Origin: Vibrio tubiashii ATCC 19109
Lineage (GTDB): Bacteria > Pseudomonadota > Gammaproteobacteria > Enterobacterales > Vibrionaceae
Length of the DNA stretch: 64,000 nucleotides
NCBI RefSeq assembly: GCF_000772105.1
Contig: NZ_CP009354.1
Coordinates: 186,001 to 250,000, forward strand
Direction: 5' to 3'
The notes beneath the pieces were generated by a model, which worked only from the letters and a program-made list of their open reading frames with translations, was not told the DNA's origin and did not search any database. Shown here piece by piece: positions 24,665-41,387 of this stretch. Both the position numbers and the translations under genes were made by a program. Every line of letters starts with the position of its first letter. The stretch's first letter is position 1.

Positions 24665-26113
24665 TTAGATTAGTGCACCAATACTTAGAACCACGATGCA
24701 GAACAGAGTTAGAATCGCGAGTAGCGGTGCGACCCATTTCACCCAGCGCACGTATGGGACACGTGCGATAGCCAAACCACCCATAACCACAGCTGAAGTT
24801 GGTGTAATTAAGTTAACCAAACCTGACGCTGATTGGTATGCAGTGATAACGAGTTCACGACCAACACCTGCAAAGTCTGCTAGTGGCGCCATGATTGGCA
24901 TAGTAAGTACCGCTAGGCCTGACGTAGAAGGTACAAGGAATGACAGTAGAATTTCTAGGAAGAACATCACGTTGATGAACACCACAGACGATAGACCCGT
25001 CACCATTTGTTCTGCTGAGAACAAGATAGTATCTGTGATCATACCGCGGTCCATCACCACGACGATACCACGTGCGATACCGATAATCAGTGCAACACCA
25101 AGTAGGTCACGAGCGCCATCAATAAAGCTGCTTGTAAACTCTTCTTCACTCATGCGTGATACCAAGCCAACAATTATAGTTGCCGCTAGGAACATGGCAG
25201 AGATCTCTGCCATCCACCAACCTGCAACCGATACGCCGTAGATCATGACACCAAACGAGCCACCGAAGATAGTTAGGATAATCTTACGAGTAGTCGTGAA
25301 TTCCATTCCTTCCTCAGATTGGTTGCCAAGGAAGTGGGCTTTGTTTTCTTCGTACTTATCGTAAACGATAGATTTAGATTGGTCGGCGCGAACCATGCGT
25401 GCATAGCGCATTACGTAAGCAACACAGATAGCGTAGCCAATCACTAGCATGATAATGCGAAGCATGATGCCGTCAGTAAATGGAATGCCTGAAGCGTTAG
25501 CTGCGATAACCGTTGCGAATGGGTTAATGGTTGAACCGAGTACACCGATACCTGCGCCTAGTAGTACCGTAGCGGCTGCAACTAATGGGTCAAAGCGCGC
25601 TGCCATCATCACAGGAACAAGCAAGGTGTAGAAAGGTAGTGACTCTTCCGCCATACCGTAGACAGTACCACCTGCAGCAAATAGTGCCATCAGGATAGGT
25701 ATCATCATCTCTTCACGCCCTTCAAGGCGATGGGTTACACGCTCGATACCCGCGTCAATTGCCCCTGTTTTCGTTACTAGCCCTAGGAAACCACCAATGA
25801 TGAGGATGAAAAGAGAAACGTCGATCGCTGCAGCTTCGTAGCTGTTGTGATCATAGAAGCCATCAATAGGTGCAAGAAGAACATCAATAACGCCTTGTGG
25901 GTTGCCTTCAACTGCCTGATAAGTTCCTGTTACAGGAACTTCACGACCAAGATCTTCGTTCATTGCTCGGTCGTATTGGCCAGCAGGAACTATCCAGGTC
26001 AGCATTGCTACAAGTGCAATTAAGACAAAAAGAATCGTATATGCAGAAGGGAACTTAAAGTTGGCAAAGAAGCCGCCTTTTTTTTCTTCAGTCGGTACAG
26101 TTTGGGTTGTCAT
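24665..26113 (-). CDS. YfcC-family basic amino acid / C4-type carrier
   Basis: A 482-residue inner-membrane protein with about 12 membrane segments. Motifs such as WIVPAGQYDR near the N-terminus, AGGTVYGMAEESLPFY and the C-terminal STSGLAVLTMPIMAPLAD belong to the YfcC/ArcD2-like family (ion transporter superfamily). Its place directly upstream of arcA in the same direction suggests arginine/ornithine exchange, which is an inference from context. It has its own terminator, so it is not strictly in the arcACB operon. Confidence 0.8.
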   Translation of the reverse strand: MTTQTVPTEEKKGGFFANFKFPSAYTILFVLIALVAMLTWIVPAGQYDRAMNEDLGREVPVTGTYQAVEGNPQGVIDVLLAPIDGFYDHNSYEAAAIDVSLFILIIGGFLGLVTKTGAIDAGIERVTHRLEGREEMMIPILMALFAAGGTVYGMAEESLPFYTLLVPVMMAARFDPLVAAATVLLGAGIGVLGSTINPFATVIAANASGIPFTDGIMLRIIMLVIGYAICVAYVMRYARMVRADQSKSIVYDKYEENKAHFLGNQSEEGMEFTTTRKIILTIFGGSFGVMIYGVSVAGWWMAEISAMFLAATIIVGLVSRMSEEEFTSSFIDGARDLLGVALIIGIARGIVVVMDRGMITDTILFSAEQMVTGLSSVVFINVMFFLEILLSFLVPSTSGLAVLTMPIMAPLADFAGVGRELVITAYQSASGLVNLITPTSAVVMGGLAIARVPYVRWVKWVAPLLAILTLFCIVVLSIGALI

Positions 26114-30390: not shown

Positions 30391-30657
30391 AAACACCAAA
30401 CTTACGAATTAGCATATACAGGGTTCTGATATTCAATTCTGTGATCGCTGAGTAATTACTCTATATTTTTTTGCTAAAAATATCAATAGGTAAGGAAGGT
30501 GTTGAAACATAAATTGACTTCTATTTATCGTGTTAATGTATGAGATCTAAATCGCAATAGAAATGAATGTAAATTTACATCTCGACAATACAACGTGATA
30601 TTTGCCACAAAACGTCAACAAGTGAATGTAGACAGAATAATGATATGTGGTGAAACA
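30391..30657. other. Upstream region of the first nuclease gene
   Basis: AT-rich. It contains a block (30539-30577) that aligns without gaps to 33834-33872 upstream of the second nuclease, and a perfect palindrome ATGTAAATTTACAT at 30567-30580. No gene was seen. Confidence 0.55.
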
Positions 30658-33633
30658 ATGAATAGTAAATTTTATCCCAAACTTCTTGCCTTATGTGTAG
30701 CGAGCGCGATTTCCAGTGGCGTGAATGCTGATATTTTTATTTCTCAGTACGTTGAAGGCGGAAGCTACAACAAAGCTGTAGAGATTGCGAACACGGGTTC
30801 CTCTCAGGTCGATTTAACAGGTTATAAGTTGGCCAACTCATACAATGGTAGTGGCAACTGGGACAACAAACTCTCTCTTGACGGTCTTTCAATTGCCGCA
30901 AATCAAGTGATTGTCATTGCCAATACGAGAGCAAGTGATGCCATTAAAGCGTTAGCAGTAAAGCAAGATTCTTCAGTTGTAAATCACAACGGTGATGATC
31001 CATTAGCAATTCTAGATGCTAGTGATCAAGTGGTGGATATGATCGGTGTTATGGGTGATGTTGATTGGGGGAAAGATATCACTCTTGTTCGCAACTCTAA
31101 TGGTCAGGCGGCGAGTTCAACATACAATAACAAGCACTGGAACAGCTTGGCAAAAGATGACATTACAGGCTTAGGCCAGCTTGATGTTCCCGCCGCACCA
31201 GAACCATTTAATTGTCAAGTCAATGGCAATTCACCAACCTTTACTAATATTGAGGCGATTCAGGGGAGTGGTGAACGCTCACCTCTTCTAGCTGATGGCA
31301 CATACATAGGTACAGATGATGTTTATGTACAGGGTATTGTTTCTGCGGTCACTACTGGTCTAACAAAAGGTTTTTATCTGCACGCCCAAACTCCAGATAA
31401 CGATCCTGCGACTTCAGATGGTTTATTCATCTCAACGGGAGAAGGAACCTCAGAGCTAAAAGCTGGCGATGTCGTATGTGTGAAAGGTAAAGTTCAGGAA
31501 GATTACAACAATACTCAATTGGCTTCGAATGGCGACAGTTATATTAAAACCGGAACCACAGAAGTCCCACACGGTGCGAAATTTGTTGTGAATGAAGGTG
31601 AAACTTTGCGTCAGGCTCTGGAGCGCTATGAAGGTATGCTGCTAGAGCTAGATGCTGACAGCAAACTGTTTGTTACTCGTAACTTCTCATACGACTATGA
31701 CAGCAAACGCAATAACATGCTTCTTTCATATAAAGCACCACTATTTAAGCCAACTCAGTTATATGCGGCAGAAAGTGCTCAAGCGGTAGCGCTGGCGGAT
31801 CAAAATAAGAATAGTCGAGTGTTCCTTGAGTCAGATGCCAAAGCTCCAAGTGGAAAGATTCCTTATTACCCAGATTTTGCCAAAGATATAGACCAAGATG
31901 GTTCCTCTGAATATCATATACGCTTGGGTTCGCGTCTGGAAGGATTAAAAGCAGTCGTAAACTACAGCTTTAATGAATATCGTCTTATTGCCACAAACGA
32001 GGTGACCAATAGCAACTTTGTGACTTCTGGAAAAGGATTCGACGTTTCTCGAACTTCTGCCCCAAGCATTGCCAAATCTGACTTGAGAGTTGCTAGCTTT
32101 AATGTGCTCAATTACTTTACTTCGGTTGCGGCAAGTGGAGATGCTAACCCGACGGGACAGAACAGAGGTGCAACCAAAAATGAAGAGTTTCTAATTCAGC
32201 AAGCTAAAATTGTGGCTGCGATGACGAAGATGGATGCTGACATTATTGGCTTGATGGAAGTAGAGAACAATGGTTTTGGGGACGGGAGTGCGATTAAGAG
32301 TCTTACTGATGCACTAAACGCAAAGATTGCCAATACCGAAGACCATTACAGCTTTGTTGAAATTGCTAAGGCAGACAAACATCAAGATGCGTACTTTGGT
32401 ACAGATGCCATCATGGTTGCTATCTTATATCGTGCATCAGAAGTGACGCCTAAACAGGCAGCGCAGGTCATTGTTACTCCTGAACAGCATGTCGCCGAAA
32501 GCACCGTCACGCGTAGTGATGGTAATGGAGGAACTGAAACTAACAATCCTGCTTACGACAAGTACCAACGTCATAGCTTATTGCAAACGTTCACGCTTAA
32601 AGAAACTGGAGACGATTTATCTATCGTAGTCAATCACTTTAAATCAAAAGGCTCGAACTGTATTGAAGAGTGGATTGATAGAGCAGATAGAGAGCCCACG
32701 GATCTACAAGGAAACTGCAATAGATTCAGAGTTTCAGCTGCCAAAGCCGTAGGTGAAGCACTGAAAACCCTTCAAGGTGATGTATTGGTAATGGGAGATA
32801 TGAATGCCTATGGCCTAGAAGATCCTCTGTTAGTTCTTACTGACTACAGCCAAGAAAAATATGGTCGAGAGGTGTTTACTGCGGGTTATACTACCCTAGG
32901 GAAAAATGCTGATGGTAGTAATGCTACTTATGAGCAAACGGGGTCCAAAATTACCCAAGGGTACGGGTATATTAATCTAGCGACTGCACTGCACGGCACT
33001 CACACATATTCATACACTTATGGAGGTGAATTGGGTAATTTAGATCATGCATTGGCAAACTCCAGTCTTGCGAATAAAGTTGTCGCAATTGAAGATTGGC
33101 ATATCAACTCGGCAGAAACCAATATGTTTGAGTACAGCAGTAAGTACACAGCGGACATGCCAAAGTATAACGATGCCTACTCTGCGTCTGATCACGATCC
33201 AGTTGTCATTGCCATTGATCTACCGGATAAGAAAATTGAATTGCCTACGAATGGTGAGAAATTAACGGTTAATGTGACTCTACCCTTTAGTGCAAAAATT
33301 GATGACGTAGTAACAGTGACATTGACCCAAGAGAGTTCAACAGCGGCGTCAAGGTCAGCGGCACTGACTCAGGCAGATACGACTTACTTAGCTTCGGCTA
33401 AGGTAACTCAGGCTGATTTGGATAAACGCAGCATTGCTGTGAAATTTGATAAAACGCCAACGGCGGGTAGTTATAAAGTAGAGCAGAAGCTTAACGATAC
33501 CATACTATATACTGGCAGTGTCACTATTGCTGAATCATCGGCTTCATCTACAACAAATACCGACGGTGGTAGTGTTGGTTTAGGCTTCTTGATGTTCCTA
33601 TCAGGGCTAACAATGTGGAGACGCCGTAAGTAA
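30658..33633 (+). CDS. Secreted ExeM/NucH-type nuclease with GlyGly-CTERM tail (Xds paralogue)
   Basis: A 991-residue exported nuclease. A signal peptide (cleavage likely after A24) is followed by a lamin-tail domain (about 25-170), an OB-like region, and an endonuclease/exonuclease/phosphatase domain (about 475-850) with LRVASFNVLNYF, the metal-ligand glutamate in GLMEVENNG (about 534), NHFKSKG, GDMNAYG (about 716) and SDHDP (about 844). Unlike its neighbour it has about 100 extra residues (about 858-955) that look like a beta-sandwich. A GlyGly-CTERM segment with an RRRK end (about 968-991), the signal processed by rhombosortase, closes it. The ATG at 30658 begins a proper signal peptide. 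Confidence 0.85.
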   Translation: MNSKFYPKLLALCVASAISSGVNADIFISQYVEGGSYNKAVEIANTGSSQVDLTGYKLANSYNGSGNWDNKLSLDGLSIAANQVIVIANTRASDAIKALAVKQDSSVVNHNGDDPLAILDASDQVVDMIGVMGDVDWGKDITLVRNSNGQAASSTYNNKHWNSLAKDDITGLGQLDVPAAPEPFNCQVNGNSPTFTNIEAIQGSGERSPLLADGTYIGTDDVYVQGIVSAVTTGLTKGFYLHAQTPDNDPATSDGLFISTGEGTSELKAGDVVCVKGKVQEDYNNTQLASNGDSYIKTGTTEVPHGAKFVVNEGETLRQALERYEGMLLELDADSKLFVTRNFSYDYDSKRNNMLLSYKAPLFKPTQLYAAESAQAVALADQNKNSRVFLESDAKAPSGKIPYYPDFAKDIDQDGSSEYHIRLGSRLEGLKAVVNYSFNEYRLIATNEVTNSNFVTSGKGFDVSRTSAPSIAKSDLRVASFNVLNYFTSVAASGDANPTGQNRGATKNEEFLIQQAKIVAAMTKMDADIIGLMEVENNGFGDGSAIKSLTDALNAKIANTEDHYSFVEIAKADKHQDAYFGTDAIMVAILYRASEVTPKQAAQVIVTPEQHVAESTVTRSDGNGGTETNNPAYDKYQRHSLLQTFTLKETGDDLSIVVNHFKSKGSNCIEEWIDRADREPTDLQGNCNRFRVSAAKAVGEALKTLQGDVLVMGDMNAYGLEDPLLVLTDYSQEKYGREVFTAGYTTLGKNADGSNATYEQTGSKITQGYGYINLATALHGTHTYSYTYGGELGNLDHALANSSLANKVVAIEDWHINSAETNMFEYSSKYTADMPKYNDAYSASDHDPVVIAIDLPDKKIELPTNGEKLTVNVTLPFSAKIDDVVTVTLTQESSTAASRSAALTQADTTYLASAKVTQADLDKRSIAVKFDKTPTAGSYKVEQKLNDTILYTGSVTIAESSASSTTNTDGGSVGLGFLMFLSGLTMWRRRK

Positions 33634-33678: not shown

Positions 33679-33991
33679 GTCTCTCTTGTACTTGAAAAAG
33701 TAATCATGTAGCTCAACAGTCAGCTATCTTCTTCTCTCTCCCTCTTGTTATTAACGACTTGTGTCTCAAGAGTGAGATGCGTGTTATCGACATGTATTGA
33801 AAATTTGACGACGCTTCAATTATTCATCATGTCTATGAGATCGAAATCTCACTGTCACTGAATGTAATTTTTAGTTTCATAAAAAACATCAACACTGGAC
33901 ATGATTTATTAAAAAGTAGTCACGAAAAAAGTGATTTGTAACACGCTTTCTCGTTGTGGAGCAACATTGAAAGCGATGCATGGTGGATAAC
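33679..33991. other. Upstream region of xds
   Basis: About 310 AT-rich bases. It contains the block 33834-33872 shared with the first nuclease and, within it, the Pho-box-like sequence at 33852-33869. No gene was seen. Confidence 0.5.
33852..33869 (+). promoter_or_regulatory. Possible Pho box upstream of xds
   Basis: CTGTCAC-TGAA-TGTAATT has the 7-4-7 layout of PhoB sites; the first half is a perfect CTGTCA and the second is weak. V. cholerae xds is known to be PhoB-controlled, which makes this worth noting. The first nuclease has only the weaker half at the aligned place. Confidence 0.35.
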
Positions 33992-36589
33992 ATGAAACAA
34001 AAACTAACCCCAACGCTACTTGCAGCAGTGGTAGCAGGTGCTCTGTCTTCTCCAGCAATGGCAGACATTATTATTTCTCAGTATGTAGAAGGTGGCAGCA
34101 ACAACAAAGCAATCGAGATTGCTAACACTGGTGATGCTTCTGTCTCTCTTGATGGCTATGAGCTAGCCAAATCAACCAATGGCAATGGTGAGTGGGGCAG
34201 CAAGCTGTCACTCAACGGCCAAGTGCTGGCAGCGAAAAGCGTACTGGTTGTTGCTCATACTAGCGCCAGCGACGACATTAAAGCGGTTGCGGACATCCTT
34301 AATGGCTCAGTAACGGGTTTCAATGGTAATGACCCAATGGCACTGCTGAAAAATGGCAGTGTGCATGATCTGCTAGGTGACATGGGTGGCTCTGACTTTG
34401 CAAAAGATACCACTTTAGTTCGCAACTCAGATGCGATGGCACCTTCCACAGCGCACAATGCTGCACAGTGGTCTTCACTGCCGAAAGATAGCATTGAAGG
34501 GTTAGGTACGTTGGATGGTGGCACAGCTCCAGAGCCATTCGCTTGTACTCAAGATGGCGCAGCGCCAACCTTTACTTCTATTCAAGAAATCCAGGGTGAA
34601 GGTGATACCTCTCCATTTATTAATGGCTACCCATACATCACAGACGAAGACTTCTTTGTTAAAGGTGTGGTTAGCGCCGTGACGACGGGCCTAACCAAAG
34701 GTTTCTACCTACAAGCACTAACTGATGACTACAACCCACAAACATCAGAAGGTTTGTTCGTTCACACTAACCAGTCTAGCTCAGAGCTAAAACCAGGCGA
34801 TGTCGTGTGTGTGAAAGGTAAAGTTCAAGAATACTACAACCACACTCAGCTAAAGACAGAAAATAACAACTGGGTTAAGCAAGGTGAGCAAGCAGCGCCA
34901 ACGGCGACGGATATCGAGATCCTGCCAACAGATAAAAACTTCGATCGCACGCTAGAGCGTTACGAAGGCATGCTAGTCAGAACTACTGAAGCGCTCGATA
35001 TGCGTGTGACGCGTACTTTCGGCTACGATTACGCTGCTCGTCGTAACAACATGGTACTTGCGCAAGGTCGTATCAGCATGCAGCCAAACCAAAACTTTGC
35101 CGCAGGTTCAGAGCAAGCGAAACAACAGAGCATCGAAAACGCGGAGCGTCGTCTATACGTAGAATCTGATGCCAAAGCGCCAAACGGCTCTATCCCTTAC
35201 TACCCAGATTTTGGCCGCACCGACGCAGACCAAGATGGTTCAACAGAAGATTACATCCGTGTTGACGATACGATTGTTGGTTTAGAAGGTGTAATCACTT
35301 ACAGCTACGGCGATTACCGTCTAATCCCGACTAATACGTTAACCAGTGAAAGCTTCGTACGTAACGATCCACGTACTCAAGATATCGATATGAAAGAAGG
35401 CGACCTACGTATCGCGACTTTCAACGTCTTGAACTATTTCAACTCGCCGTTTGGTGGTGACACGAACCCACATGGTAACAACCGTGGTGCGAACAACTTT
35501 GAAGAGTTTGAAGTACAGCAAGCGAAGATCGTCAATGCGATTCTACGTCTAGACGCTGACATCATCGGCCTGATGGAAATCGAGAACAACGGCTTTGGTG
35601 AAAGCGGTGCGATTCGTCAGCTTGTAGACCAGCTAAACGCACGCATTGAAAACAAGAAAGATCGTTACGATATCGTCGCTATCGACAGCAATGGCGATAA
35701 AGTGACAGACGAAAATGATTACATTGGCACCGACGTTATCACAACAGGCGTTATCTACCGTCCTAAAGTGGTTAAGCTAAAAGAGTCTCGCGTTATCGCA
35801 ATGCCAAGTCAGCAAGCACCTGAAGTGGTTGATGAAAACGGCAAAGTGATTGAAGACGGTAAGAACTACCAACGTGACTCTCTAGCGCCAACCTTTAAGG
35901 TTAAAGGGACCAAAGAGAAGATCACAGTGGCGATTAACCACTTCAAATCAAAAGGTTCTAAGTGTTGGGAAGATGCAGCACCAGTTGAGCAAGGCGGTCA
36001 GGGTGGTCAAGACCTAGATAAGCAAGGCTCATGTGAAAACTTCCGCGTTGCAGCGGCAGTGGCACTGGGTGATGCGCTGAAAGAGATTAAAGGCCACAAA
36101 GTTATCTTAGGTGATATGAACTCGTACGGCATGGAAGATCCAATGCTTGTTCTGACGGATTACAGCCAAGATAAGTACGGTAAGACAATCAAAGCGGCTC
36201 GTAACACATACATCGGCGGTGAAGTTCAGTACGGTGATGACGGTGCAGTGATTACTCACAACTACGGTTACATCAATGCCGTCGCGAAAGCGCATCCAAA
36301 CAGCTGGAGCTACTCATTCAATGATGAAGTGGGCGCACTTGACCACCTATTGATCAGCCCAAGTCTAGAGAAGCACTTTGTTGATGCAACAGACTGGCAC
36401 ATCAATGGTGGTGAATCTACGCTGTTCGATTACAACGATGAGTACAAAGGTGACCTACCTAAGTACCAAGATCACTTCCGTTCTTCTGACCACGATCCAG
36501 CAGTTCTAGAGCTAAACATGGCAGGTTCATTCGGCTTCGGCGCAATGATGTCTCTGTTCGGCCTAGCGCTATGGCGTCGTCGTAAGTAA
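33992..36589 (+). CDS. xds: Extracellular nuclease Xds (ExeM/NucH family, GlyGly-CTERM)
   Basis: An 865-residue exported DNase. A signal peptide (cleavage after about A24, AMA-D), a lamin-tail domain (about 25-165), a middle OB-like region, then the endonuclease/exonuclease/phosphatase domain from about 472 with LRIATFNVLNYF, MEIENNG (about 529), NHFKSKG, GDMNSYG (about 708) and SDHDP (about 832). The C-terminus (about 843-865) is a GlyGly-CTERM anchor ending WRRRK. V. cholerae Xds degrades extracellular DNA in biofilms and for phosphate supply. The ATG at 33992 has a GGTGGA ribosome site. Its last 104 bases are duplicated at 40048-40151. Confidence 0.88.
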   Translation: MKQKLTPTLLAAVVAGALSSPAMADIIISQYVEGGSNNKAIEIANTGDASVSLDGYELAKSTNGNGEWGSKLSLNGQVLAAKSVLVVAHTSASDDIKAVADILNGSVTGFNGNDPMALLKNGSVHDLLGDMGGSDFAKDTTLVRNSDAMAPSTAHNAAQWSSLPKDSIEGLGTLDGGTAPEPFACTQDGAAPTFTSIQEIQGEGDTSPFINGYPYITDEDFFVKGVVSAVTTGLTKGFYLQALTDDYNPQTSEGLFVHTNQSSSELKPGDVVCVKGKVQEYYNHTQLKTENNNWVKQGEQAAPTATDIEILPTDKNFDRTLERYEGMLVRTTEALDMRVTRTFGYDYAARRNNMVLAQGRISMQPNQNFAAGSEQAKQQSIENAERRLYVESDAKAPNGSIPYYPDFGRTDADQDGSTEDYIRVDDTIVGLEGVITYSYGDYRLIPTNTLTSESFVRNDPRTQDIDMKEGDLRIATFNVLNYFNSPFGGDTNPHGNNRGANNFEEFEVQQAKIVNAILRLDADIIGLMEIENNGFGESGAIRQLVDQLNARIENKKDRYDIVAIDSNGDKVTDENDYIGTDVITTGVIYRPKVVKLKESRVIAMPSQQAPEVVDENGKVIEDGKNYQRDSLAPTFKVKGTKEKITVAINHFKSKGSKCWEDAAPVEQGGQGGQDLDKQGSCENFRVAAAVALGDALKEIKGHKVILGDMNSYGMEDPMLVLTDYSQDKYGKTIKAARNTYIGGEVQYGDDGAVITHNYGYINAVAKAHPNSWSYSFNDEVGALDHLLISPSLEKHFVDATDWHINGGESTLFDYNDEYKGDLPKYQDHFRSSDHDPAVLELNMAGSFGFGAMMSLFGLALWRRRK

Positions 36590-36590
36590 T
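36486..36590 (+). repeat. Direct repeat, left copy (3' end of xds)
   Basis: These 105 bases recur at 40048-40152 with three mismatches by my count, in the same direction, and bracket the three Imm49-type genes. This copy is the intact end of xds. Confidence 0.93.
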
Positions 36591-36610
36591 CACTCTACAA
36601 CAAAAAATCG

Positions 36611-36642
36611 AAGGGCAGGTGAGTAATCACCTGCCCTTTTAC
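36611..36642 (+). terminator. Terminator after xds
   Basis: Perfect 12-bp arms 36611-36622 and 36627-36638 with a 4-base loop and a short T-run. It differs from the terminator that follows the displaced xds end at 40174. Confidence 0.88.
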
Positions 36643-36980
36643 ATTGTGATAATCTGATCAAGTTAATGATTTATCTGCTATTTTTATATCGCGATCTATA
36701 TCATGTCGATTGTAATGATAACTTGAATGTATATAAATTGAATGTACTGTGCTCTTAATTTATAAAGCGCCCAATGCTCCACCATTAAGTATCACAGTCG
36801 GTGGAAAACAATAGTTTTGAAAGTGACGATTAATAATCCGAACAGATAGGTGACATTTTTGCTCGGCTAGAGTTGCTGTAGGCAGGGGCTGGTTAGAGTA
36901 CTTAAGCACTGAATGTATTTCCAATAAAGATACTGTACTAAACGTGCTCATAATGTGAAATTTGAGATAACGTCACCACT
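36643..36980. other. AT-rich gap before the immunity genes
   Basis: About 340 bases without a complete gene. A short frame (about 36731-36805) ends YKAPNAPPLSITVGGKQ and stop, and looks somewhat like a protein tail, but it is too short to judge. The promoter of the immunity genes must lie here. Confidence 0.4.
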
Positions 36981-37838
36981 ATGAAAAAAATATTGAAGAC
37001 CCATGTAGGAAACTTGAAAGGGCATCTAAGGTTATACAACGCCACTTTGGATAGTTTTCTTGGTACTAATGAATTCTCAATGAACAATGCAGGGAGAGAT
37101 CGGTTTGGTTTTGAAACAGGTTATGAGGATCAAATTAAGTTATTCGCTATAGGTAATCATTTACCTTCAGTTTCTAAGCAAGAAGTCAGCGATCATTTAT
37201 TTACTGCTCAGCAATACTTAATGTTATGGCAACATGCGCTAATACAACCAGTAGGAGAGATTGTTCCTTTCACTTATCAAGGGGTAGATTTCGCTATCCC
37301 TACGAGTGGGAAAATACAATCAATCCCTTCTCTTGAATGGCTAGAAATGATCTATCTCACGATCGTTACGGGGCGTTACCAAGATCTAAATTTACTCATG
37401 GATTTACTTAACAGTGGTCAGGTGTTTTCTCCATCTGAATTGCAGGCGCTCCACTGTGAAATTGTCTTGCATATGCTGGGGCTAAAAGACAGTGAAGATA
37501 TTTCTGCTGCAATCAATCAACTGACCACTCTTATTGTTAGTAAAGAGAGCTTAAGTCAAGGTAAATGGGCACCTGTCCATGCTATTACCATCACGCTTGG
37601 CTTTTTTGATGTGATGAAAACCGTGCACCAGCAAGATCAAGACGCCTATCGTAAGGCTATGTATCGTGCTTTGGAAATGCACAAAGAGTGGTGGACGCAT
37701 GACAAGGACTTTAGTCAAATCGCTCAAGGTTATGTTGCTATGCCATTACTGGCTGCAGCCAAGTATGCGTATGAGAAGTATGGCTTTACGCTAGATTTTG
37801 AATGCGGCTATCTCCCTAGCTATATATACCTGAGTTAG
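36981..37838 (+). CDS. Imm49-like immunity protein, copy 1
   Basis: A 285-residue, probably all-helical cytoplasmic protein without signal or membrane segments. The C-terminal third carries the pattern I associate with the Imm49 family of polymorphic-toxin immunity proteins: a regular helix with ALEMHKEWWTHDKD, then a PLLAAAKYAYEKYGF helix, then a final YLPSYIYL. The two following genes share this layout. No toxin gene adjoins it. Copy 1 is the most diverged and lacks the WVKGDI end of the others. The ribosome site before the ATG is weak. Confidence 0.68.
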   Translation: MKKILKTHVGNLKGHLRLYNATLDSFLGTNEFSMNNAGRDRFGFETGYEDQIKLFAIGNHLPSVSKQEVSDHLFTAQQYLMLWQHALIQPVGEIVPFTYQGVDFAIPTSGKIQSIPSLEWLEMIYLTIVTGRYQDLNLLMDLLNSGQVFSPSELQALHCEIVLHMLGLKDSEDISAAINQLTTLIVSKESLSQGKWAPVHAITITLGFFDVMKTVHQQDQDAYRKAMYRALEMHKEWWTHDKDFSQIAQGYVAMPLLAAAKYAYEKYGFTLDFECGYLPSYIYLS

Positions 37839-37898
37839 CTACTTCAATATTTGAGCGCTAAGTAAGCCAGCTAAAAGTCTAAGGATTGAGTACTAGCA

Positions 37899-38987
37899 AT
37901 GACAAACCTTCATTTATCAATCGTTCGCATAAGCTCATCGATGATGGCTTTAATAAAGGCAATGGCAAGCGGAAACAGTACAAAGAGAAGGCATTTCAAC
38001 CAGATGAAAAAATGTACCTTAGAACACCATGTGATTGAGTACTGTCAACGAAATTGGGGAGATGATTACTCCTTACTTAAGTTGAAGCAGTGGTTAGAAC
38101 CGTTGATAAATATGACCCCGTGTAGGGATGACCTTGAGGGGCTAGCGCCTAAAGAATATCAGTTTAGTTGTATTACTCAGCAAGAGTGGCACCTTGAAGT
38201 ATTGGGAAAGCGGCTTATTAATGGGGACCCAAAATCGCATTTAGAGTGGCACCTAAAACTTATCTACCACTTAGGGCAAGCATATTTTCGAATGACATTT
38301 AATGCAGGCACAGAGGTCCCAATCAATGTCAATCAGCATTGTTATTCTGCGGTTGGTAAGGTTTACGATAGCAGCTTAGGCTTAGATGATTGGGTTGTCC
38401 CATTTTCAGCGGCATTAATTCTTCAAGATTACAATGGTGCCTTGGAACTATGCGAAATGAATGATTCTTTCATTGATGCTGATATTTTTACCGCAAGCTC
38501 TGCAGACAAGCAATTTGATAAAGCCATGTTACGGTTATTGAAAGGAGTTTTGCATCCAGAATCTGATATAGAAGCGCTACTGAAGGATGCGGCACAAAAA
38601 GTCTTTGACCCTCAGGCGATTGGCTCCACCAGAAAAGGAGTCGATCACAGAGTGGAAGAGGTGCAATATCGCTACTTGCCGCTAATCTCTTTGATTCATG
38701 CGATGTACAGTTCTGACAGGGAAACCTTGTACCCAGAGAAACTAAAAGAAGCCCTAGAGGATCATAAAACATACTGGATGAGGAATGAACCACAGCATGA
38801 TAATGCTTATGTCTCTAAACAATGGATGGCCATGCTAATCACTGCTCTTGCTTCTTTGGCTTATCATCGTTGGGGGCTTGAGCCATGCGTCGATACTCTA
38901 TATATGCCTGAGTGGATGGTAAAAGGGGACATAAGCCCAGAATTTAAGAGCAAAGAAGAAGTATTTGCTTTGGCGAAGACAGAATAA
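37899..38987 (+). CDS. Imm49-like immunity protein, copy 2
   Basis: Up to 362 residues. The C-terminal half has the family pattern: LPLISLIHAMYSSDRETLYPEK, a helix ALEDHKTYW, ITALASLAYHRWGLEP and YMPEWMVKGDI. It is closest to copy 3. The start is uncertain: the ATG at 37899 gives a basic, unusual first 35 residues, while the ATG at 38004 (MKKCTLEHHVIEYC) begins the part that looks conserved. In another frame, 37883-38035 is rich in charged residues and could be the residue of an older coding end. Likely in one transcript with copies 1 and 3. Confidence 0.68.
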   Translation: MTNLHLSIVRISSSMMALIKAMASGNSTKRRHFNQMKKCTLEHHVIEYCQRNWGDDYSLLKLKQWLEPLINMTPCRDDLEGLAPKEYQFSCITQQEWHLEVLGKRLINGDPKSHLEWHLKLIYHLGQAYFRMTFNAGTEVPINVNQHCYSAVGKVYDSSLGLDDWVVPFSAALILQDYNGALELCEMNDSFIDADIFTASSADKQFDKAMLRLLKGVLHPESDIEALLKDAAQKVFDPQAIGSTRKGVDHRVEEVQYRYLPLISLIHAMYSSDRETLYPEKLKEALEDHKTYWMRNEPQHDNAYVSKQWMAMLITALASLAYHRWGLEPCVDTLYMPEWMVKGDISPEFKSKEEVFALAKTE

Positions 38988-39072
38988 TCCTTTGGTTTGA
39001 TAATCTTTTCTTGAATACCACGATATTCAACGAACCCAATCTCGATTAAGAAGGTGAACGAGGCATTTAATA

Positions 39073-40002
39073 ATGTATAGTAAAGTACAACATCATATTG
39101 AGCTTAATCCTACCTATGTAGAGCGAGTGCACTCTAGACTTCCCGATAGTTTGGTTAAATTTTATAACAATCAACAGTCTGGTATAAGAAAGAAGCCGGA
39201 GAATGCAAGCATAGGAGGCGAACAAGCAATAGGGATACTTGGCGAGTTGCAGCGTTTCGACTGGGATAAGCCGACGGCTCAATGGCTTCTTCAAGAGGCA
39301 GCTGAACTGATGACAGTTGGCTTTAGCATTGCTCTGAACCCTGATAAGCAGGTTATGTGCCAGTATGCTGGCTTTCTGTTTGAGGCTGAGGGGCAAACTA
39401 ACCAAACTTCCAGAGACTTTTTCTCTTGGCTAAATGCATTTTGTCTCGCACTTATAACTCGTGATAAAGAGTTACTTGAAACAATCTGGTTATTTGAAGA
39501 GTCAAATATTGTTACAGAGCCCGGTGGGTGGTCGTTTGACCCTGAACATCGTTTCATTAAATCACTACTGGCTATGCTGAAAGGGATGTTTAACCCTAAT
39601 GCAGATATGTCTGCGCTTATCAAAACAGCTGCCGAAATGTCTGCACCTGAATACATCGACCCCTTGTGGCGTGATGAAGCGAATCACCTTTATGTGCCTT
39701 TAATACCACTTGTGGCATCAATGTATACCTCAGATCGAAACGAAGCTTACCCCCAGGCTTTAGAGCAAGCTATCCGGACTTACCGAGCTTACTTCGATTT
39801 ACCTGCTCCAGACGACTCCCCTAGTTTTGGTTGGAATTCATCGCAGTGGGTATCTTTTCCCATAACCGCTTTAGCGTCGCTCGCGTTTCAACGTTATGGT
39901 TTGGAGCCGCAAGTAGAGAGTTACTACTTACCTCTTTGGTGGGTTAAAGGAGATATTCCAAATCACAGACTGAGAGCAGAAGACGTTTTGGACAATTTGT
40001 AG
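39073..40002 (+). CDS. Imm49-like immunity protein, copy 3
   Basis: A 309-residue, probably helical cytoplasmic protein. Shared family features are YVPLIPLVASMYTSDRNEAYP, a helix AIRTYRAYF, ITALASLAFQRYGLEP and YYLPLWWVKGDIP, matching copy 2 closely at the C-terminus. The start has a GAGG site about 10 bases upstream. It ends 45 bases before the displaced xds fragment. Confidence 0.7.
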   Translation: MYSKVQHHIELNPTYVERVHSRLPDSLVKFYNNQQSGIRKKPENASIGGEQAIGILGELQRFDWDKPTAQWLLQEAAELMTVGFSIALNPDKQVMCQYAGFLFEAEGQTNQTSRDFFSWLNAFCLALITRDKELLETIWLFEESNIVTEPGGWSFDPEHRFIKSLLAMLKGMFNPNADMSALIKTAAEMSAPEYIDPLWRDEANHLYVPLIPLVASMYTSDRNEAYPQALEQAIRTYRAYFDLPAPDDSPSFGWNSSQWVSFPITALASLAFQRYGLEPQVESYYLPLWWVKGDIPNHRLRAEDVLDNL

Positions 40003-40013
40003 GTGCTATTTTT

Positions 40014-40152
40014 TAAGTACCAATGCCGCGAAACCATTTCATTAGGCCTGACCACGATCCAGCAGTTCTAGAGTTAAACATGGCAGGTTCATTCAGCTTC
40101 GGCGCAATGATGTCTCTTTTCGGCCTAGCGCTATGGCGTCGTCGTAAGTAAT
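40014..40152 (+). pseudogene. Displaced 3' end of xds (direct repeat, right copy)
   Basis: From 40048 to 40151 the DNA encodes DHDPAVLELNMAGSFSFGAMMSLFGLALWRRRK and a stop (33 residues shown in part by its ends: DHDPAVLE and LALWRRRK), the same as the last residues of Xds except one Gly to Ser change. It has no start codon or ribosome site. Just before it, AAGTACCAA (40014-40022) also matches xds (36461) but at a different spacing and out of frame, as if the join were degraded. The terminator after it may be the original one of xds. Confidence 0.88.
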
Positions 40153-40173
40153 AGGCTTCCTTTAGCCAAAACG

Positions 40174-40206
40174 AAATCCGCCACTTTATGTGGCGGATTT
40201 TATTTT
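40174..40206. terminator. Bidirectional terminator after the xds remnant
   Basis: Perfect 11-bp arms 40174-40184 and 40190-40200 with a 5-base loop. T-runs follow on the plus strand, and a weaker one on the minus strand, so it can also serve the lipoprotein gene. Confidence 0.85.
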
Positions 40207-40573
40207 ATAGGTACTGATCTTCTTCTAAACAGCGCTGCTCGTCGTAGGCGTCGTAGCGACCGCGTGGTCCCTTAAAGTGGATACTAACGACCATCCCTTT
40301 CTCTACAAAATAACGTAGGTTATCGCAGGAGACTTTTCGCCCCCAGCTTTTTACTGTACTCGTGCGCCAGTAATACCCAGACGGCAGAGATTCCTCTGTT
40401 GAGATGATGCCGTCATCGGATACTTTGAAGTCTTTCCATTCCGCTAGGGCTTTTTGGGCTTCGTTAATAGTTTCCTTGCTTGCAGTCGGTGTAGGGACCT
40501 CTGGTGATAGAGTTTGGCAAGCCGAAAGAGTTAGTACTGCAAGAGCGCTAACAAGTAATGGTTTTAGTTTCAT
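40205..40573 (-). CDS. Small predicted lipoprotein
   Basis: A 122-residue protein with a lipoprotein signal peptide, lipobox LSAC and the lipidated cysteine at C19. The mature part is hydrophilic and has two cysteines (KVSCDNL and EQRCLEE) that may pair. I do not recognise its family. The residue after the lipidated cysteine is Gln, which suggests outer-membrane sorting. It is convergent with the xds remnant. Confidence 0.75.
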   Translation of the reverse strand: MKLKPLLVSALAVLTLSACQTLSPEVPTPTASKETINEAQKALAEWKDFKVSDDGIISTEESLPSGYYWRTSTVKSWGRKVSCDNLRYFVEKGMVVSIHFKGPRGRYDAYDEQRCLEEDQYL

Positions 40574-40799: not shown

Positions 40800-41387
40800 A
40801 TGCTGTTAATCATCGATAATTACGACTCTTTTACCTACAACCTGTACCAGTATTTTTGTGAGCTGGGCGCAGAGGTTAAGGTAGTGCGTAATGATGAAAT
40901 CACGCTTGAAGAGATAGAGGCGTTGAATCCTACCCATTTGGTTATCTCTCCGGGGCCCTGTACGCCCAATGAAGCGGGTATTTCGTTAAGTGCAATTGAG
41001 CATTTTGCGGGAAAGTTGCCGATTCTTGGTGTTTGCTTAGGCCATCAGGCGATTGCGCAGGTGTTTGGCGGGGAAGTGGTACGTGCTAGGCAGGTAATGC
41101 ATGGAAAAACGTCCCCAATTCGTCACAATGATCGCAGTGTGTTTTCCACGCTCAATAATCCGCTGACAGTAACGCGTTATCACTCACTTGTGGTTAAGAA
41201 CGGCTCTTTACCAGATTGTTTTGAGCTTACCGCCTGGACAGAGCTTGAAGATGGCTCGATGGATGAGATCATGGGGTACCAACACAAAACCTTGCCGATT
41301 GATGCGGTACAGTTCCATCCTGAGTCGATTAAAACAGAGCAAGGCCACCAGATCCTCGCTAACTTTTTGGCTCGCCAGCCACTTTAA
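40800..41387 (+). CDS. pabA: Aminodeoxychorismate synthase glutamine amidotransferase subunit
   Basis: A 195-residue class I glutamine amidotransferase that supplies ammonia to PabB for p-aminobenzoate (folate) synthesis. [19 protein letters not shown] starts at 40800, the nucleophile is in GVCLGHQA, and the His-Glu pair in QFHPESI. An open stretch of 43 codons upstream lacks homology. The closely related TrpG is excluded mainly by context: pabA next to argD/astC is the E. coli order near crp. Confidence 0.88.

What the first reader, a model, noticed from the sequence alone, without database searches (positions are those of the whole stretch)
36590..40152. Orphan Imm49-type immunity array captured between two copies of the xds 3' end
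Seen: three tandem, diverged paralogues with the C-terminal layout of Imm49 immunity proteins, no recognisable toxin beside them, and a 105-bp direct repeat (36486-36590 and 40048-40152, three mismatches by my count) that is the xds 3' end including its stop. Known: Imm49 belongs to polymorphic-toxin systems, and arrays of orphan immunity genes (acquired interbacterial defence islands) protect against neighbours' effectors. Inferred: the roughly 3.5-kb cassette entered at the tail of xds, bringing its own xds end, so that xds stayed intact. The nuclease tail could serve as a repeated entry point for defence cassettes in Vibrio.
Basis: partly seen in the sequence, partly recalled or inferred. 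Interest (0 to 1): 0.85.

Follow-up and report, generated by a model that had tools for sequence, protein, structure and literature searches.

The report
Orphan immunity genes in toxin island
A marine Vibrio carries three spare antidote genes, probably against rival bacteria's DNA-cutting toxins, in a spot where some related species keep whole toxin islands, and a leftover copied end of the neighbouring gene shows where they were spliced in.

Summary
Confirmed: a 105-nt direct repeat of the xds 3' end (3 mismatches) brackets three tandem ORFs, and all three pass the Pfam Imm49 cut-off. In 61 Vibrio genomes compared, the xds-pabA interval is a variable site: 36 are empty (140-231 bp), 9 hold other genes, 11 hold toxin or immunity islands (SpvB/RHS giant proteins, CdiA-like proteins with Imm49, a VgrG module, Imm49 arrays), 5 are unresolved. 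So "entry point for conflict cassettes" is supported. An entry mechanism at the xds tail is only partly supported: the second tail was found in 2 of 61 genomes, with different lengths (105 and 224 nt), and I recognised no integrase ORF. The array moved horizontally: synonymous divergence from G100 is 1.54 in xds but 0.20 and 0.14 in imm2 and imm3. Best reading: incoming xds-imm1-3 DNA recombined with the resident xds, and its right end joined at a 6-nt microhomology (CTGACC), pushing the old tail aside, as in the published V. cholerae displacement model. Imm1 relatives directly follow CdiA-like proteins whose variable tips show, by eye, a restriction-endonuclease-like residue pattern. New lead: decayed RAYT relics punctuate such arrays in relatives, and both displaced tails begin at a relic-like end.

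The parts
33980..36589 (+). xds, extracellular nuclease (ExeM/NucH family), intact ORF; left boundary of the island
   Evidence: NF033681 617 bits; 99% protein identity to G047
36486..36590 (+). left copy of the 105-nt repeat = last 104 nt of xds including its stop, plus one base
   Evidence: identical over 102 nt to G047 and to the G024 left copy
36611..36638 (.). terminator-like inverted repeat after xds, of the type also found after both xds tails in G024
36981..37838 (+). imm1, Imm49 family, 285 aa
   Evidence: 94% identical in G024; 66% identical relatives directly downstream of CdiA-like genes in G114 and G225
37899..38987 (+). imm2, Imm49 family, 362 aa
   Evidence: 92% in G024, 89% (two copies) in G100
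39073..40002 (+). imm3, Imm49 family, 309 aa
   Evidence: 92% in G024, 91% in G100
40045..40053 (+). GGCCTGACC: start of a RAYT/REP-like 3' end (GGCCTGACCCCGATG in G024) fused to xds sequence; CTGACC (40048-40053) is shared by both parents of the junction
   Evidence: the 8-mer GGCCTGAC occurs twice in the 64-kb window, at 24916 and 40045
40048..40152 (+). right copy of the repeat: displaced xds tail without start codon, 3 mismatches to the left copy
40173..40201 (.). bidirectional terminator-like hairpin between xds tail and lipoprotein gene; the same kind of junction follows xds in G107 and others
40205..40573 (-). small lipoprotein-like gene (122 aa; lipoprotein by eye), part of the island: 94% identical gene beside pabA in G024, 38-44% identical genes 53-64 bp after xds in six genomes
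40812..41387 (+). pabA/trpG-type glutamine amidotransferase (name recalled, not profile-scanned); right boundary of the island

Best explanation
This is a homogeneous array of three orphan Imm49 immunity genes sitting in a variable polymorphic-toxin site between xds and pabA. The proteins most likely bind and neutralise restriction-endonuclease-fold DNase tips (Tox-REase-1/6 type) delivered by neighbours' CdiA-like or other toxins (inferred). The array arrived horizontally from another Vibrio (shown by divergence). An incoming xds-imm1-imm2-imm3 piece recombined homologously with the resident xds at its 3' end (similarity switches there). Its other end joined the resident xds tail at the microhomology CTGACC (the junction is in the sequence, the mechanism is inferred). 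This left xds intact and the resident tail, lipoprotein gene and pabA displaced to the right.
For: Imm49 above cut-off in 3 of 3. Empty site in the relative G047, with 96.7% nt identity to the left flank and 95% to the right, and in 36 of 61 genomes in all. The same genes at the same site in G024 and G100. Horizontal origin: between G000 and G100 dS is 1.54 for xds and 1.45 for argD (pabA saturated) but 0.20 for imm2 and 0.135 for imm3; between G000 and G024 it is 0.42/0.41/0.44 for xds/pabA/argD but 0.15/0.19/0.14 for imm1-3. Breakpoint: in 18 of 19 sliding windows G000 is closer to G047 than to G024; in the last, which spans the xds stop, it is closer to G024 (0.945 versus 0.859). Junction: G024 reads GGCCTGACCCCGATG after imm3, xds reads TTCTGACCACGATCC, the window reads GGCCTGACCACGATCC. 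Constraint: dN/dS 0.17-0.30 for imm1-3 against G024. Partner: in G114 and G225 the imm1 relative overlaps the stop of a DUF637 gene preceded by a TPS-domain gene (TPS scanned in G114, DUF637 in G225). The first ~1040 alignment columns of that protein are 40-91% identical between G101 and G225, the rest 14-30%, and the five ends printed carry D...ExK...Q..Y-like stretches by eye. Zhang 2012 lists Tox-REase-1 and -6 as Imm49 partners (passage).
Against: No toxin tip matched a Pfam toxin family, so the REase assignment rests on residue pattern and on the published pairing. No activity was tested. The presumed pre-insertion state xds-lipoprotein-pabA was not seen in the 61 genomes. The left tail, the G024 left tail and the G047 tail are identical over 102 nt, so the tail itself cannot say which parent it came from. 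The lipoprotein gene has dS 0.99 against G024, higher than the flanks, so the right side has a history of its own.
Confidence: 0.7

Rival explanations
1. The window array is a deletion product of a longer G024-like array: a deletion of about 2.8 kb between the CTGACC after imm3 and the CTGACC in a pre-existing displaced xds tail removed the RAYT-punctuated genes.
For: G024 has the two short repeats needed, after imm3 and inside its 224-nt tail; the imm1-3 region is colinear with G024 from 33782 to 40058.
Against: The two right tails share none of their private differences: 3 private to G000, 2 private to G024, 5 differences between them. Beyond the tail G024 continues with the SpvB/RHS gene and the window with the lipoprotein gene, so a second change is needed.
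Confidence: 0.25
2. A site-specific integrase inserts cassettes at the xds 3' end, and the repeats are its attachment sites.
For: An intact gene end on one side and a tail copy on the other is the usual look of 3'-end integration (established knowledge).
Against: I recognised no integrase-like ORF among those listed for the window array or the G024 array; not every ORF was profile-scanned. The repeat ends differ between genomes (105 versus 224 nt), and 2 of 61 genomes have the repeat although 11 have islands.
Confidence: 0.04
3. The right tail is the relic of a tandem xds duplication (an xds paralogue already stands in tandem here), and the imm genes merely lie between.
For: An xds paralogue at 30595-33633 lies directly upstream (48% identical).
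Against: The right tail is 97% identical to xds, the paralogue's last 44 nt only 70%. The junction starts inside a RAYT-like end, and no second tail was found in the downstream DNA of the other genomes (almost none could be searched in G214, little in G106 and G138).
Confidence: 0.06

Closest known systems
Homogeneous polyimmunity loci (Zhang et al. 2012, PMC3482391; passages seen)
   Same: Tandem immunity genes of one family; the same proposed role against non-kin toxins.
   Different: The passage lists SUKH, Imm6, Imm11, Imm28, Imm33, Imm36 and Imm41 as prominent homogeneous types; Imm49 is not named in it.
Sequential displacement of T6SS effectors in V. cholerae (Kirchberger et al. 2017, PMC5361080; passages) and V. 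anguillarum to V. cholerae transfer (PMC9711863; passages)
   Same: One-sided recombination, homologous on one side and illegitimate on the other, adds genes and shifts an old gene end back.
   Different: There the displaced gene is an effector in a T6SS cluster; here it is the end of a nuclease gene flanking a site that also hosts SpvB/RHS and CdiA-like genes. Here a 6-nt junction microhomology can be read; PMC9711863 states no apparent homology at its second crossover.
Acquired interbacterial defence (orphan immunity) islands (concept recalled; PMC10470768 seen in search listings only)
   Same: Orphan immunity genes kept without the toxin.
   Different: Protection not tested here; no mobile element identified in the window array.
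RAYT/REP elements (PMC2817692, PMC8266576; search listing only)
   Same: Relics start like a RAYT ORF and end in REP-like CCTGACYC sequence; an intact relative in G010 matches PF01797.
   Different: Here decayed relics follow immunity-size genes in an island; none of the 10 of 22 papers listed holds the term 'immunity genes'.

Membership tests
Imm49 (PF15575) | Profile score above the curated cut-off | tested here: met
   3 of 3 ORFs, 46.7/47.2/66 bits against 30.1; imm1 only over the C-terminal third of the profile
Imm49 (PF15575) | Gene next to a toxin, typically with a Tox-REase-1 or -6 tip | tested here: not met
   No toxin-like ORF beside the array and, for two architectures, none in the genome. 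A CdiA-like neighbour is present for relatives in G114, G225, G101 and G106. This lowers 'cognate pair', not 'Imm49 family'.
Imm49 (PF15575) | Neutralises its toxin | not testable with these tools
   needs an experiment
Homogeneous polyimmunity locus | Several tandem paralogues of one immunity family | tested here: met
   definition read
Displacement by homology-facilitated illegitimate recombination | One homologous junction and one illegitimate junction with a displaced resident gene end | tested here: met
   sequence pattern only; the event itself is inferred
Displacement by homology-facilitated illegitimate recombination | Displaced gene is the old effector (as in the V. cholerae model) | tested here: not met
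   the displaced end is that of xds
Integrase-borne island at a gene 3' end | Integrase gene and a fixed repeated core | tested here: not met
   no integrase-like ORF recognised in the listed ORFs (not all profile-scanned); repeat 105 versus 224 nt
Integron gene cassette array | attC sites and integron integrase | not tested
   no attC model was run

The most novel reading that the evidence does not exclude
At this Vibrio site, decayed RAYT transposons act as punctuation of immunity cassettes. Units of [immunity gene + RAYT relic], all pointing the same way, are shuffled by recombination between relics, and REP-like relic ends are the preferred illegitimate join points when a new array enters at xds. 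This would be a cassette-collecting island without an integrase. The window itself keeps only the first nine bases of such an end.
Probability: 0.16. Interest if true: 0.75.

Novelty: new variant of a known kind. Interest (0 to 1): 0.5.

Why it matters
It names one chromosomal site, xds-pabA, where Vibrio species carry different interbacterial weapons and antidotes, with empty sites, toxin islands and orphan-antidote states side by side. The window preserves a readable scar of how antidotes can be added without losing the neighbouring gene, which makes the published displacement model testable at nucleotide level outside T6SS clusters. The relic-punctuated arrays of relatives suggest a possible way by which antidotes are collected.

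Tried and rejected
Integrase-type attachment sites: rejected because the repeat lengths differ and no integrase-like ORF was recognised. Descent of the right tail from G024's right tail: no shared private sites. Mobility on plasmids or phages: imm3 against plasmids gives 3 records, all under 60% identity; imm1 against phages gives none. Solved structures: none for imm3 and only weak matches at E 0.23 for one toxin tip. Assigning the toxin tips to a Pfam toxin family failed (one fragment in G176 had an AHH match below cut-off). NCBIfam gave no meaningful match for imm1-3, PADLOC none. An exact REP-like pattern was absent from the own genome. Structure prediction could not be run. Two homologue searches with imm3 returned one and five proteins, one with imm1 fourteen, most of those named being from Vibrio. 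My notebook entry miscounts the relics (16 and 8); the answer gives 17 and 7, used here.
Full report
What is there. The 105-nt repeat (36486-36590 and 40048-40152) is real, 97% identical, and matched only twice in the genome. It is the end of xds with its stop. Between the copies stand three + strand ORFs of 285, 362 and 309 aa. Each passes the Imm49 cut-off. The genome-wide Imm49 search listed 2 places, both in this array; it missed imm2, which passes as a protein, so the search is not exhaustive. Imm2 and imm3 share 33% identity over the aligned part.

The site. A search of 227 genomes of the genus with the 105-nt tail matched 61, the own genome included; up to three candidates per genome were scored. 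I fetched the 60 others as stretches of mostly 15-18.5 kb, less at contig ends, and read them in one way. Sorting all 61: in 36 xds and pabA are 140-231 bp apart; in three of these (G015, G205, G180) the chosen xds hit is only 51-53% identical. Nine have 1.6-6.2 kb of other genes; genes from five of these loci were scanned and gave GGDEF/EAL, EamA, LysR/AbgT/M20, radical SAM/oxidoreductase and PvcA matches, four more share gene clusters with them, and the remaining genes were not scanned. In G091 of this group the xds frame ends early. Eleven have toxin or immunity islands: G000, G024, G037, G038, G100, G101, G106, G107, G109, G167, G169; for G024 and G106 the two ends lie on different contigs and the link is inferred. 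Five are unresolved: G138 (xds followed by a relic, pabA on another contig), G214 (contig end), and G187, G197 and G171 (pabA not in the stretch fetched). The 166 genomes without a tail match were not examined at this site.

Second tails. Apart from G000 and G024, none was found in the downstream DNA of the fetched stretches or of the extended islands of eight further genomes and three extra pieces. One 30-nt match at E 0.022 in G109 was set aside as chance. G214 offered only 42 bp to search, G106 and G138 about 2-2.6 kb next to xds.

The island contents. Seven of the eleven carry a 2225-2428-aa protein of one kind (six in cluster c14; 2396 aa in G024). The two scanned have SpvB, FG-GAP and RHS matches, and one also TcdB_midN. 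G038 has two such genes in tandem. G101 has a TPS-domain protein, a DUF637 protein and an Imm49 gene in a row; G106 has relatives of the last two, and a fragment of the giant gene. G100 has an Imm49 array (imm1 fragment, imm2 twice, imm3, imm2 fragment), a RAYT relic, VgrG, DUF4123 and a LysM protein. G024 (Vibrio bivalvicida 605 by the 38,371-bp contig) has xds, imm1-3, three small genes each followed by a RAYT relic, a 224-nt xds tail, a small gene and the giant gene. Its right end, with a 94%-identical lipoprotein gene beside pabA, is on another contig that repeats the same 109-aa ORF and relics.

Transfer. In 18 of 19 windows along xds G000 is most similar to G047, which has an empty site; in the last window, across the stop codon, it is most similar to G024 (five genomes compared). 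Synonymous divergence shows that the array is younger here than its flanks: against G100, xds 1.54 and argD 1.45 (pabA saturated) but imm2 0.20 and imm3 0.135; against G024, xds 0.42, pabA 0.41 and argD 0.44 but imm1-3 0.15, 0.19 and 0.14. These are simple Nei-Gojobori counts by my own script. The lipoprotein gene is an exception, with 0.99 against G024.

The scar. In G024 the sequence after imm3 reads GGCCTGACCCCGATG; xds reads TTCTGACCACGATCC; the window reads GGCCTGACCACGATCC. The shared CTGACC is the junction. In G024 the tail begins about 7 T after another relic end (GGCCTGACTCCGATG). So both tail junctions found (2 of 2) lie at REP-like relic ends. The two right tails have no private difference in common, which favours separate events over one event followed by deletion, but on only five sites. 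After the right tail the window has a CCGCC-type terminator and the lipoprotein gene, as directly after xds in several relatives. The resident state was therefore probably xds-lipoprotein-pabA, which I did not find in any of the 61 genomes.

What the proteins do. Zhang et al. 2012 pair Imm49 with Tox-REase-1 and Tox-REase-6 and give their conserved residues (passages). Between G101 and G225 this protein is 40-91% identical per 80-column block over the first 1040 alignment columns and 14-30% after that. The ends of G225, G114, G101, G106 and G116 carry D...ExK...Q..Y-like stretches; I read this by eye, and no profile confirmed it for those scanned. The likely mechanism of the window's genes is therefore binding and blocking of such nuclease tips delivered by competitors. 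Constraint (dN/dS 0.17-0.30 for imm1-3 against G024, 0.31-0.37 for imm2 and imm3 against G100) fits genes in use.

Orphan status. The own genome has no match to the DUF637 protein (3 of 5 genomes rang, among them its source) or to the SpvB/RHS protein (3 of 5 rang). G047 has neither. Toxins of other architecture were not excluded.

RAYT relics. A 296-nt relic from G024 matched 12 of 227 genomes at E 1e-6, with three candidates per genome scored; the own genome is not among them. It has one Y1_Tnp match elsewhere and no copy of an exact REP-like pattern. In the seven island stretches examined, 17 of 17 relics longer than 90 bases point in the xds-to-pabA direction and 7 of 17 start within -5 to +27 bp of the stop of a 109-259-aa ORF. 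Three of G024's relics are counted on both of its overlapping contigs, so there are at most 14 distinct ones, and tandem copies are not independent. The gaps of the other relics with a listed gene are 79-357 bp. Outside the site, related elements lie beside a CdiA-like gene (G109), an RHS-like gene (G103), a small two-gene pair that looks like a toxin-antitoxin module (G166, recalled, no PADLOC match) and a PtuA/PtuB pair (G138); others, such as in G216, lie beside none that I recognised. No background rate was measured, so this is a lead. I lowered its probability from 0.17 to 0.16 after the recount.

Print. Displacement and homology-facilitated illegitimate recombination are published for T6SS clusters (PMC5361080, PMC9711863; passages). 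My searches listed no paper on toxin islands between xds and pabA or on RAYT relics in immunity arrays: searches (25 of 86 listed; 2 of 2; 15 of 8,557; 15 of 235; 5 of 5; 12 of 169; 10 of 22; 10 of 1,435; xds, pabA, Vibrio: 1 of 1, a Fic toxin structure) and 81 (RAYT, polymorphic toxin: 3 of 3, not opened). Apart from the passages named, only listings were seen, and subscription papers are not held.

Noticed in passing
L034:7956-10002 (G024), L041:11589-11874 (G100), L154:7966-9366 (G106), L045:12479-12674 (G109), L048:4958-5140 (G138): Decayed RAYT relics with REP-like ends stand between small genes of the xds-pabA islands, all in one orientation (17 of 17 in the stretches).
   Followed up: partly
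L186:8701-11453 (G138): A RAYT relic stands just upstream of a PtuA/PtuB (Septu) pair.
   Followed up: partly
L190:7202-16001 (G109): An intact RAYT-like ORF lies directly downstream of a 105-aa ORF and a 2515-aa CdiA-like ORF.
   Followed up: no
G038 island (L047 and L101): Two SpvB/RHS giant genes in tandem at the xds-pabA site.
   Followed up: no
L145:8750-10748 (G197): An imm1-like and a G101-Imm49-like gene stand together downstream of a 1491-aa ORF that looks like MukB (name recalled): possibly a second orphan Imm49 site.
   Followed up: no
L139:8053-13832 (G176): Imm49-like genes alternate with short toxin-tip-like fragments carrying EAK...QQGHPEY-like stretches.
   Followed up: partly
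window 30595-33633: A second ExeM-family nuclease gene (48% identical) in tandem upstream of xds.
   Followed up: partly
L036:5920-8915 (G219): A different insertion, between pabA and argD, with ORFs of 467, 294 and 200 aa.
   Followed up: no
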